Below, piece after piece: positions 21,583 through 34,925 of a DNA stretch of 64,000 nucleotides; the stretch's first letter is position 1, and each line of letters opens with the position of its first letter. This DNA comes from Phycisphaeraceae bacterium. Lineage in GTDB: Bacteria > Planctomycetota > Phycisphaerae > Phycisphaerales > UBA1924. The translations under genes and the position numbers were made by a program. Below the pieces are notes generated by a model, which worked only from the letters and a program-made list of their open reading frames with translations, did not search any database and was not told the DNA's origin. The stretch is taken from contig JAHBWV010000001.1 of NCBI GenBank assembly GCA_019636845.1, positions 1,550,001-1,614,000 on the forward strand. The letters are read 5' to 3'.

Positions 21583-21954
21583 ATGCTCCGAAAGATCCTG
21601 CACTCAAAGATCCATCGTGCGCGCGTGACTTCTGCCCGGCTCGACTATGTCGGGTCGATCACGATCGATGCGGACATCCTCGATGCCGTCGGGCTTCGGG
21701 CCAACGATGCCGTGGTCATCGCCAACTGCGACAACGGCGAACGCTTCGAGACCTACGTCTTCCGTGGCGAGCGTGGATCCAAGCAGATCATCATCAACGG
21801 TGCCGCCGCCCGCCTTGCCGGCGAAGGCCACACCGTGATCATCATGCACTACGCATTCGCATCGGAAGACGAGTACCGCGCCCACAAGCCCGCGGTCGCG
21901 CTCATGCGTCCCGACAACACGATCGAAGAGATCATCCACTACGACAATCGATGA
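21583..21954 (+). CDS. panD: Aspartate 1-decarboxylase (beta-alanine synthesis)
   Basis: PanD converts L-aspartate to beta-alanine, normally for pantothenate and coenzyme A. The 123-residue proenzyme has Lys9 in the HSKIHRARVT motif and the self-cleavage site Gly24-Ser25 in YVGSITID, which generates the pyruvoyl cofactor. The NGAAARL motif of the active site is also present. A GAGG-type ribosome-binding site precedes ATG 21583. No panB or panC is nearby. Instead, the gene is 85 bases upstream of an NRPS operon whose last adenylation domain carries a beta-alanine-type pocket and which ends in a phosphopantetheinyl transferase. Both observations suggest that this copy serves the NRPS, as monomer source and possibly for CoA/phosphopantetheine. 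Whether a second panD exists elsewhere cannot be seen. Confidence 0.96.
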   Translation: MLRKILHSKIHRARVTSARLDYVGSITIDADILDAVGLRANDAVVIANCDNGERFETYVFRGERGSKQIIINGAAARLAGEGHTVIIMHYAFASEDEYRAHKPAVALMRPDNTIEEIIHYDNR

Positions 21955-22039
21955 GCCCTTCGCCCGTGGCCATGCCCGGACGGAATGCACTCGCCTTAGC
22001 GGTCGTCCACGTCTCGACATTTCAGCCGAGGGAATCCCC

Positions 22040-33100: not shown

Positions 33101-34245
33101 TCGATCGGGCCGCGCTCCCAGATCCGACAAAGCTCCGTGCCGGCTCGGTGTCGGACGAGCCGGAGCCCGGTTCAACCGCAGCGGAAGTCGTGGGGCTCTT
33201 TCGCCAGGTCCTCGGACGAGACGGCATCGGCCAAGACGACGGCTTCTTCGATCTCGGCGGGCACTCGCTGCTGGCAGTGAAACTCTTCGCATTGATCGAG
33301 GACAAGCTCAAGCGACGCCTCCCCCTCGCGACGCTCATGGCCGCGCCCACGCCGCGTGAGCTCGCGGCGGTGATCGACGCGGATTCGTCGGACGATCATC
33401 GTTCGCCGCTCGTGCCTGTTCGAGCCACGGGTTCTCGCACGCCATTCTTCTGCGTGCACGGCATGGACGGCGACGTGCTCTTCCTCCAGCGTCTGCTCGC
33501 GGTCACTTCGCCGGAACAGCCGATCTACGGCTTGCAAGCACGCGGCATGGACGGCGTCGAGACGCCGCAGGCAACCGTGGAAGAGATGGCGGCGACCTAC
33601 GAGCGAGCGATCCGCCAGGTCCAGCCCACGGGGCCATACGTCATCGGGGGCTACTCGCTCGGTGGCATGATCGCGCTCGAGATCGCGCATCGCCTGGCGC
33701 AGCGGGGTGAGTCCGTTGAGCGTCTTGTCATCCTCGACACGCGTGTCCCCCGAGTCGTGGGCCAGAATCTGGCGAAGCGAACACTCGTACAGCGTCTGCG
33801 CTGGCACTTCCGAAACGGCCCGGTCGAGTTCGTCAGGAAGATGTACATCGGTGTCGTCGAAGTGAAAGCGTACAAGGCCTTCAAGCGACTCAATCTGCCA
33901 ATCCCTCGCTCGCTGCGTCGCCTCGATACACGCTACGCGAATCTCAAGGCATACTTCACATACACACCCCGCCCATGGGGAGGCAAGACCTCGATGCTGC
34001 TCGCCACGATCCAGGAAGAGATGTTCCAGAACATGGGCGCGTTCGGATGGGAGCACATCGCGATCGGAGGCCTCGACCTGATCCCGGTTGAGTGCGACCA
34101 CGCGAACTTCTTCGGTCTCCAGACGATCACCAACGTCGGAGAAGCGTTCGAGCGGGTACTCGCCGATGCCTGCACCCCCGATTCGCCGGCGTGCATGGCG
34201 ACGAGCACACCCCCGCGTGAATCTGCCGCCGGTGCCGCGTCATGA
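30190..34245 (+). CDS. Non-ribosomal peptide synthetase terminal module: C - A(beta-Ala) - PCP - TE
   Basis: This 1351-residue protein is a single NRPS module with release domain. The condensation domain (~1-440) has His147-His148-x3-Asp152-Ala, so the usual final Gly is Ala. As the upstream module ends in epimerization, a D-donor-accepting C domain is expected. The adenylation domain (~470-970) has the A3 motif YTSGSTGKPKG. Its pocket residues 676, 677, 680, 719, 746, 748, 772, 780 and 781 read VDWVVSLAD plus the A10 Lys. The published beta-alanine code is VDWVISLADK, and replacement of the usual Asp235 by Val is characteristic of beta-amino acids. PCP carries Ser1026 in GGHSL. The type I thioesterase has Ser1156 (GYSLGG), Asp1183 and His1304 as its likely triad. 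The stop overlaps the next start as ATGA, showing tight coupling to the phosphopantetheinyl transferase. Confidence 0.95.
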   Translation: MAERPQLRNIEDIYPATPMQEAMLFDALYGAGGAANLEQFTFLIRGPLDAGAYREAWRRVVHRHQALRARFAWPEGERPLQAIAREVDLPWAEEDWTGLSAEAARARLDAFLLSDRRRFFDVSKAPLMRFVLVRLGPDLHRLVWTFHHILVDAWSVSIILGDVDKNYAAVRRGGPDGLPPAKRLRDVVAWIAAKEADAASNAAAKAHFASSLSGYDTLTPLPFRRSEQEAAGRSGELVTSSVSVTGDAYESLKAAARAMRVTIGTLVLGAWGLVMARHAMSAEPVFGMTVSARPVDVPDVDAVVGLVMNALPIRARYKPDTTVADYLQSIQSSVRASAPFEQTRLRAVQEACGMSGREGLFDSLVILANYPLDDARRDGSATLTIEEPKSYGWAVVPMQFMVMPWKDLEIEARFDSSAFDPPRVREILGQFATALRELALEPARLVRDVPVLSQEERAAAFADTLRTSHPRDRGATLTSAFCARAAESPGAVAYRLGKSSLTYAELDARSAALAAELKAAGVTHGAPVGVCVEVSLDLPVALLGVVRAGASYVPLDPTYPKARLAQIVEDARPARIVASAVGESVIGEAISGDPGGRSTSIVRVDRASRTPPSGWVDVPVAPGDAAYIIYTSGSTGKPKGVRGTHCGAMNRFEWMCRTRPFEPGERTCWCTTINFVDHVWEVFGPMLAGIETIVIPQEIVKDPRALVEHLALHKVSRLVVVPALLEAILDHAPDLAKRAPSLRTIVSSGEALAATLAARLLDAAPRIELVNLYGSSEVAADVLAHSVTRQDVILGRIPLGKPIDNAVVLLLDHDMQPSPPGSPGMIYVGGDPLADGYHGRPDLTAERFFPNPFPELGVPTIFKTGDLAKRSRDGVVEYMGRADYQVKVRGFRIELGDVEQAITLHPSVGENVVIARRQGNDNRLIAYVAPRNGSLDAAELRRSIQSKLPPFMVPSEFVVLDALPRTPNGKIDRAALPDPTKLRAGSVSDEPEPGSTAAEVVGLFRQVLGRDGIGQDDGFFDLGGHSLLAVKLFALIEDKLKRRLPLATLMAAPTPRELAAVIDADSSDDHRSPLVPVRATGSRTPFFCVHGMDGDVLFLQRLLAVTSPEQPIYGLQARGMDGVETPQATVEEMAATYERAIRQVQPTGPYVIGGYSLGGMIALEIAHRLAQRGESVERLVILDTRVPRVVGQNLAKRTLVQRLRWHFRNGPVEFVRKMYIGVVEVKAYKAFKRLNLPIPRSLRRLDTRYANLKAYFTYTPRPWGGKTSMLLATIQEEMFQNMGAFGWEHIAIGGLDLIPVECDHANFFGLQTITNVGEAFERVLADACTPDSPACMATSTPPRESAAGAAS

Positions 34246-34925
34246 CGGCGACGCTCGCTGGTGTCAGTGAGCTCGAATGCGCCTCCGGCCCTCCCGACCT
34301 GCGCATCTTCCTTGCCGACATGCGACTCCTGCCCGAAGCAACCTCGCTCCAGGCGGATATCGACGATGCCGAACGCCTCCGTGCGGCTACATTCCGCAGC
34401 CCTGACGCACGCGACTCATACATCCGAAGGCGATGGCTGCGGCGAGTCCTCATCGCGCGCGGGCACGACCTGAACCCCGCTCATATCCGCATCGAATCAG
34501 ATCGTCTGGGCCGTCCCCGGGTCATGGGGCCTGATCAGATCAGTTCTCTCGAGATATCGACCTCCAGCGCGGGGCATCTCGCTCTCATCGCATGGCGCCG
34601 GGATCTCCCGCTCGGCGTCGATATCGCGCGCCTTGATCCCGACCAGGCATCCCCCGCCGCGGCCGCAGTCTTCATGTCACCGGATGAACTCCGCACGTGG
34701 CACGACGGCGACGCGCTCGGGTTCTTCCGACTCTGGTCGCGCAAAGAGGCCGCGCTCAAAGCGATCGGCACCGGTTTCGCGACCGACCCGCCGACCGTGA
34801 GCGTCATCGGTCCGACGCTCGTCGCGCACGCCGCACCGCTGCCACGCACCATCGAACTCCACGACCTTCCAGCTCCGTCTGGCTACGTCGGAGCAGTTGC
34901 ACTCGGGCAAAACCAGCCCCGTTGA
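34242..34925 (+). CDS. Sfp-type 4'-phosphopantetheinyl transferase
   Basis: This enzyme moves the phosphopantetheine arm from CoA to the Ser of carrier proteins. The 227-residue length fits the Sfp/Gsp class. The magnesium-binding and catalytic motifs are LGVDIARL near residue 125 and FFRLWSRKEAALKAIGTGF near residue 165. An N-terminal RRRWLRRVLIARG motif matches the P-loop region of the family. It overlaps the terminal NRPS gene by four bases, so its substrates are most likely the three PCP domains of this cluster (Ser1106 and Ser2183 of the first protein, Ser1026 of the second). Confidence 0.93.
   Translation: MTATLAGVSELECASGPPDLRIFLADMRLLPEATSLQADIDDAERLRAATFRSPDARDSYIRRRWLRRVLIARGHDLNPAHIRIESDRLGRPRVMGPDQISSLEISTSSAGHLALIAWRRDLPLGVDIARLDPDQASPAAAAVFMSPDELRTWHDGDALGFFRLWSRKEAALKAIGTGFATDPPTVSVIGPTLVAHAAPLPRTIELHDLPAPSGYVGAVALGQNQPR

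What the first reader, a model, noticed from the sequence alone, without database searches (positions are those of the whole stretch)
21583..34925. Cluster of panD, two NRPS and a PPTase predicted to make a Ser/Ser/beta-Ala peptide with its own beta-alanine supply
The pocket residues of the three adenylation domains, aligned by hand to GrsA, give DVWHVSLVD(K) twice and VDWVVSLAD(K) once. The first is the serine-type code (DVWHxSLxDK). The second differs at one position from the published beta-alanine code VDWVISLADK. The gene directly upstream is a complete panD, whose product is beta-alanine. The gene directly downstream is an Sfp-type PPTase, overlapping by four bases. A monomer-supply gene and a monomer-selecting domain agreeing independently makes the product prediction, (N-formyl-)Ser-D-Ser-beta-Ala, unusually concrete. 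I do not recall such a tripeptide from planctomycetes.
Basis: partly seen in the sequence, partly recalled or inferred. Interest (0 to 1): 0.88.

Follow-up and report, generated by a model that had tools for sequence, protein, structure and literature searches.

The report
Four-gene cassette for formylated Ser/Ser/beta-alanine peptide
A planctomycete carries a self-contained four-gene cassette that makes its own beta-alanine and very probably joins it to two serine-derived units as a small formylated peptide; the same four genes travel together in four genera, which makes an unknown natural product easy to search for.

Summary
Complete panD (21583-21954), an F-A-T-C-A-T-E synthetase (22040-30145), a C-A-T-TE synthetase (30190-34245) and a PPTase (34242-34925) lie on one strand. 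Computed pocket codes are DVWHVSLVDK twice and VDWVVSLADK once. A congener lacks exactly these 13.6 kb, panD included, between the same neighbours and has no detectable panD elsewhere. Cassette PanDs form their own clade, and the PanD, NRPS1 and NRPS2 trees agree. The predicted product needs revision: the module-2 C domain falls with the dehydrating CmodAA domains (McyA, AmbE; 100/100), so the first serine is probably dehydrated (N-formyl-dehydroalanyl-D-seryl-beta-alanine). Its catalytic HHxxxDG reads HDAILDG in all five copies examined; loss of the second His is reported only for bleomycin-type conjugate-adding domains. Dedicated PanD homologues are known in NRPS clusters (KirD/AurD, CrpG), so this is a new member of a known kind with an odd C domain. 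Interest 0.5.

The parts
21583..21954 (+). panD, pyruvoyl-dependent aspartate 1-decarboxylase, only copy in the genome
   Evidence: catalytic residues read from the sequence
22040..30145 (+). NRPS1: F - truncated C - A(Ser) - T - C(modAA type) - A(Ser) - T - E; TTG start preceded by GAGGGAA
22040..22909 (+). formyltransferase (F) domain, Asn/His (INYHDAPLP) and Asp (DRVDFGD) motifs kept in five genomes
   Evidence: Pfam; motifs; fold match to Met-tRNA formyltransferase and ArnA
22967..23689 (+). truncated condensation domain (C-lobe only, no HHxxxDG)
   Evidence: hhalign probability 88.5% to columns 199-459 of the C-domain alignment; no PDB sequence match
23723..25219 (+). A1, code DVWHVSLVDK (Ser)
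25355..25357 (+). T1 phosphopantetheine Ser codon (IGGDSIL)
25532..26914 (+). C domain of module 2 (C2), CmodAA (dehydrating) clade, motif HDAILDG at about 25958-25978 instead of HHxxxDG
26954..28450 (+). A2, code DVWHVSLVDK (Ser); DNA almost identical to A1
28505..28684 (+). T2
28736..30031 (+). epimerisation domain (HHLVLDGLSWR), expected to give D-Ser
30190..34245 (+). NRPS2: C - A(beta-Ala) - T - TE
30220..31563 (+). C3, HHILVDAWS, groups with a C domain that follows an E domain (DCL type)
31636..33099 (+). A3, code VDWVVSLADK (beta-alanine)
33184..33375 (+). T3 (LGGHSLL)
33442..34116 (+). thioesterase (GYSLGG, Asp in ILDTR, His in CDH)
34242..34925 (+). phosphopantetheinyl transferase; a separate AcpS gene lies elsewhere in the genome
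21300..34945 (.). cassette as a unit: absent from congener G001, where 86 bp stand between the same neighbours

Best explanation
A self-contained four-gene nonribosomal peptide cassette. PanD decarboxylates aspartate to beta-alanine (inferred from family and residues). The PPTase arms the carrier domains (inferred). NRPS1 loads Ser (code), formylates it (F domain with intact Asn-His-Asp), and a CmodAA-type C domain probably dehydrates it to N-formyl-dehydroalanine while joining it to a second Ser, which the E domain turns to D-Ser. NRPS2 adds beta-alanine and its thioesterase releases the product: most likely N-formyl-Dha-D-Ser-beta-Ala (C10H15N3O6, [M+H]+ 274.103), or its undehydrated form (C10H17N3O7, [M+H]+ 292.114). 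Shown: gene content, motifs, codes, conservation as a unit. Inferred: every chemical step. The 0.7 is for the cassette making a formylated Ser-derived/Ser/beta-Ala peptide with PanD as its supplier; dehydration of residue 1 I put at about 0.55.
For: Codes computed and conserved in four genera at 46-50% NRPS2 identity: A1/A2 DVWH[VI]SL[VI]DK, A3 VDW[VT]VSLADK. The same four genes in the same order occur in G000, G003, G014, G027 and G070 (G002 in pieces), and no flanking gene is shared between genera. Exact empty site in congener G001, which also has no detectable panD. Cassette PanDs form one clade (97/97) and the PanD, NRPS1 and NRPS2 topologies agree. About half of 150 relatives have no detectable panD while 144 keep panC, so this PanD family is dispensable for CoA in the group. 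Separate AcpS in each of six genomes checked, so the cassette PPTase is additional. C2: best PDB relatives McyA (319 bits) and AmbE (203), next 120; in one clade with them at 100/100; the Lys...His helix and the Arg reported for CmodAA in PMC11342130 are present; some relatives follow Ser or Thr A domains.
Against: panD is the only copy, so it must also serve CoA unless another source exists. The second His of C2 is Asp in every copy, and this residue is held to be needed for peptide bond formation. Some C2-clade relatives follow A domains with other codes, so clade membership does not prove dehydration. No transporter, resistance or tailoring gene is in the cassette. The beta-Ala code itself was not found in the paper library.
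Confidence: 0.7

Rival explanations
1. One reading: N-formyl-Ser-D-Ser-beta-Ala. The C domain of module 2 only condenses, with Asp in place of the second His, and no dehydration takes place.
For: Ser codes for A1 and A2. Domains of the CmodAA clade can differ in function (PMC11342130). Relatives in the same clade follow non-Ser/Thr A domains.
Against: C2 sits with McyA and AmbE at 100/100 and carries the Lys...His helix; loss of the second His weakens ordinary condensation rather than dehydration.
Confidence: 0.3
2. Bleomycin-like case: C2 dehydrates formyl-Ser and then adds the second Ser through its amino group to the dehydroalanine beta-carbon (conjugate addition) instead of forming a peptide bond, giving a diaminopropionate-type backbone.
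For: The only CmodAA domains reported without the second His (BlmVI-C2, TlmVI-C2, ZbmVI-C2) do conjugate addition (PMC11342130). HDAILDG is invariant in five copies.
Against: In the bleomycin type both His are lost (Phe plus Gly/Ala); here the first His is kept and the second is Asp. No bleomycin domain was available for the tree, so closeness to that group is untested.
Confidence: 0.12
3. panD is ordinary pantothenate biosynthesis that happens to sit here, or supports CoA for the carrier domains, and A3 uses beta-alanine from the general pool or another beta-amino acid.
For: Only panD of the genome; panC is present; a PPTase is in the same cassette.
Against: Absent together with the NRPS genes from G001, which keeps panC; in the relatives inspected without the NRPS, panD lies among unrelated genes such as argH or sensor kinases; one adjacency in four genera with different flanks.
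Confidence: 0.1
4. A3 selects another beta-amino acid (for example 3-aminoisobutyrate) and PanD decarboxylates a substituted aspartate, as CrpG does in cryptophycin.
For: CrpG, a PanD homologue, prefers 3-methylaspartate (PMC7459860). The pocket differs from VDWVISLADK at one position.
Against: No mutase gene for methylaspartate in the cassette; PanD is an ordinary equivalog by score.
Confidence: 0.07

Closest known systems
Kirromycin/aurodox clusters with KirD/AurD
   Same: A PanD homologue inside an NRPS-containing cluster supplies beta-alanine; kirromycin also has its own PPTase, KirP (PMC9361827). A similar panD lies in an elfamycin-type cluster on a Streptomyces globosus plasmid.
   Different: Large PKS/NRPS pathway in Streptomyces; AurB code DTLQLGVIWK, not VDWVVSLADK; no formyl start.
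Cryptophycin CrpG
   Same: PanD homologue as a cluster-borne monomer supplier (PMC7459860).
   Different: Acts on 3-methylaspartate; PKS/NRPS depsipeptide in Nostoc.
Linear gramicidin synthetase LgrA
   Same: Formyltransferase domain at the start of the first module (solved structures matched).
   Different: LgrA joins F directly to A; here a truncated C domain lies between; substrates and length differ.
CmodAA (dehydrating) C domains: McyA, AmbE, AlbB
   Same: Sequence clade (100/100 with McyA and AmbE), Lys...His helix, Arg at C6.
   Different: Motif HDAILDG; McyA has HHSILDG and AmbE HHSVLDG.

Membership tests
NRPS cluster with its own PanD (KirD/CrpG kind) | PanD homologue inside the cluster | tested here: met
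NRPS cluster with its own PanD (KirD/CrpG kind) | A domain specific for beta-alanine or a derivative | tested here: met
   By code only: VDWVVSLADK, nearest outside relative VDWVISLADK; no assay
NRPS cluster with its own PanD (KirD/CrpG kind) | PanD product is built into the peptide | not testable with these tools
   needs labelling or gene deletion
CmodAA C domains | Falls in the CmodAA clade | tested here: met
   100/100 with McyA and AmbE; the tree has only two labelled CmodAA references and no labelled dual E/C references
CmodAA C domains | [K/R]SVLLAAH-like helix before C5 (Lys/Arg and His) | tested here: met
   K[AS]FYLA[TVA]H in five genomes; a similar motif also in a relative after a non-Ser/Thr A domain
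CmodAA C domains | DG of HHxxxDG strictly kept | tested here: met
   HDAILDG
CmodAA C domains | Second His of HHxxxDG (kept in 47 of 50 in PMC11342130) | tested here: not met
   Asp in five of five; not an absolute requirement of the family
CmodAA C domains | Ser or Thr on the upstream carrier | tested here: met
   A1 code DVWHVSLVDK
CmodAA C domains | Dehydrates the donor residue | not testable with these tools
   needs assay
Formyl-starting NRPS (LgrA kind) | N-terminal F domain with Asn/His/Asp catalytic residues | tested here: met
Formyl-starting NRPS (LgrA kind) | F transfers formyl to the first aminoacyl-carrier | not testable with these tools
   needs assay

The most novel reading that the evidence does not exclude
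A CmodAA condensation domain with Asp in place of the catalytic His dehydrates formyl-Ser and then adds the next serine to it by conjugate addition or another non-peptide linkage, so that the cassette makes a small formylated, beta-alanine-ended compound with a new backbone rather than a plain tripeptide.
Probability: 0.15. Interest if true: 0.75.

Novelty: new member of a known kind. Interest (0 to 1): 0.5.

Why it matters
Planctomycete NRPS products are mostly unknown. Here supply gene, selecting domain and cassette inheritance agree, the product is small and its mass can be predicted, and a natural cassette-less congener exists as a control. The HDAILDG variant gives a concrete test of what the second His does in dehydrating C domains.

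Tried and rejected
Alternative beta-alanine source: each of six genomes checked has a PF00282 PLP decarboxylase, but the G000 one (best fragment tested) is far under the PanP cut-off (46 against 606 bits), so the source in G001 stays open. The genome-wide pattern search outside planctomycetes found only Streptomyces and Photobacterium NRPS with no panD in the stretches fetched; the Streptomyces A domains tested there have unrelated codes. The AlphaFold model of C2 from five sequences is poor (pLDDT 43) and was not used. GC does not mark the cassette as foreign (0.65 against 0.63-0.64). That panD is a second, extra copy was rejected: it is the only one.

Full report
What is there. The window is G000:C1:1550001-1614000 of a 3.67-Mb genome, 95% complete. 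Named relatives that carry the cassette are MAGs labelled Phycisphaerales or Phycisphaerae. Four same-strand genes run from 21583 to 34925: panD; NRPS1 of 2701 aa (F, truncated C, A, T, C, A, T, E); NRPS2 of 1351 aa (C, A, T, TE); and a PPTase whose start overlaps the NRPS2 stop by 4 bases. NRPS1 starts at TTG with GAGGGAA just upstream. Catalytic motifs are intact except for the one in C2.

Pocket codes. Aligned by script, A1 and A2 read DVWHVSLVDK and A3 VDWVVSLADK. In the other genera A1/A2 read DVWH[VI]SL[VI]DK and A3 VDW[VT]VSLADK. I could not confirm that published code in the paper library. That Asp moves from position 235 to 236 for beta-amino acids is from my own knowledge.

Is panD part of it? 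Yes, by four lines. (a) The order panD-NRPS1-NRPS2-PPTase recurs in G003 and in three other genera, G014, G027 and G070, with panD 54-89 bp upstream of NRPS1; identities to the window are PanD 68-73%, NRPS1 57-61% and NRPS2 46-50% across genera. No flanking gene is shared between the genera. G002 holds the same genes on separate contigs. (b) Congener G001 is collinear on both sides, window 15829-21299 and 34946-36550, with 86 bp in place of 13.6 kb, and has neither NRPS nor detectable panD. (c) Cassette PanDs are one clade (97/97, after leaving out two long-branch rows; with them in, the group needed two changes), and PanD, NRPS1 and NRPS2 give the same branching order between genera. (d) In relatives without the NRPS that I inspected, panD lies among other genes, for example between argH and a helicase in G025. 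A search of 400 genomes spread over the order found the cassette only in the same six.

Does panD serve the peptide only? It cannot be an extra copy, because G000 has no other, and panC is present. But 70 of 150 relatives, G001 among them, have no detectable panD, while 144 of 150 keep panC. So the group often manages CoA without this enzyme family; by what route is unknown. AcpS is present elsewhere in all six genomes checked, so the cassette PPTase is an addition.

The condensation domain that changes the product. C2 is strongly conserved across genera (70-72%, against 57-61% for the whole of NRPS1). Its best solved relatives are McyA (319 bits) and AmbE (203 bits), far above the next at 120 bits. 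In a tree of 53 C-type domains it lies with both in a 100/100 clade, while C3 lies with a Streptomyces C domain that directly follows an E domain. PMC11342130 describes the CmodAA type: dehydration of carrier-bound Ser or Thr, a [K/R]SVLLAAH-like helix and arginines at C6, all recognisable here. Among plasmid-borne relatives, three follow Ser or Thr codes, but others in the clade do not, and labelled dual E/C references were not in the tree, so dehydration is likely rather than shown. HHxxxDG is HDAILDG in all five copies. In that paper the second His is missing in three of 50, the bleomycin-family domains that add to the side chain instead of making a peptide bond. I therefore keep three products open: formyl-Dha-D-Ser-beta-Ala (favoured), formyl-Ser-D-Ser-beta-Ala, and a conjugate-addition product.

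Other anatomy. Between F and A1 lies the C-lobe of a condensation domain without its active site (hhalign 88.5%); the F fold is confirmed by Foldseek against formyltransferases. The A-T units of modules 1 and 2 are 98.6% identical in DNA over 1613 bp, with a 1305-bp perfect run, and the units of this genus group together rather than by module, which points to gene conversion inside the gene; an assembly error cannot be excluded from sequence alone.

Against what is known. PanD homologues dedicated to a pathway are known: KirD/AurD for beta-alanine, with PPTase KirP in kirromycin (PMC9361827), and CrpG in cryptophycin (PMC7459860). So the principle is not new. I know of no described cluster with this domain order and this four-gene content, but that is memory, not a test. 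I file it as a new member of a known kind, with one unusual catalytic motif.

Noticed in passing
window 23750-25362 and 26981-28593: A-T units of modules 1 and 2 are 98.6% identical in DNA, with a 1305-bp perfect run; 93.5% in G003 and 68-77% in the other genera. The G000/G003 units group together rather than by module, which suggests gene conversion.
   Followed up: partly
window 22967-23689: Truncated condensation domain (C-lobe only) between the formyltransferase and the first A domain; a similar stretch is present in the formyltransferase-like NRPS of G104 (L066).
   Followed up: partly
150 relatives: About half the genomes have no detectable panD, yet 144 of 150 keep panC: the source of beta-alanine for CoA in this group is unclear.
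   Followed up: partly
L066:9171-13535: G104 has a single-module formyltransferase-like NRPS (F, truncated C, A, T, TE) whose F domain lacks the INYHD motif and may be inactive.
   Followed up: no
L082 (Photobacterium galatheae S2753): NRPS with A codes reading Thr, Gly, Ser and beta-Ala (VDWVTSLADK) in order, and a C domain with motif SHAVLDG in the C2 clade.
   Followed up: no
window 20598-21299: Small protein with repeated GENxGWINW units and a GC-type dockerin-like end, directly left of the cassette and kept in G001.
   Followed up: no
window 15961-20842: Ser/Thr kinase with a WD40-like tail, single-domain globin and ECF sigma factor; collinear in G001 and G003.
   Followed up: no
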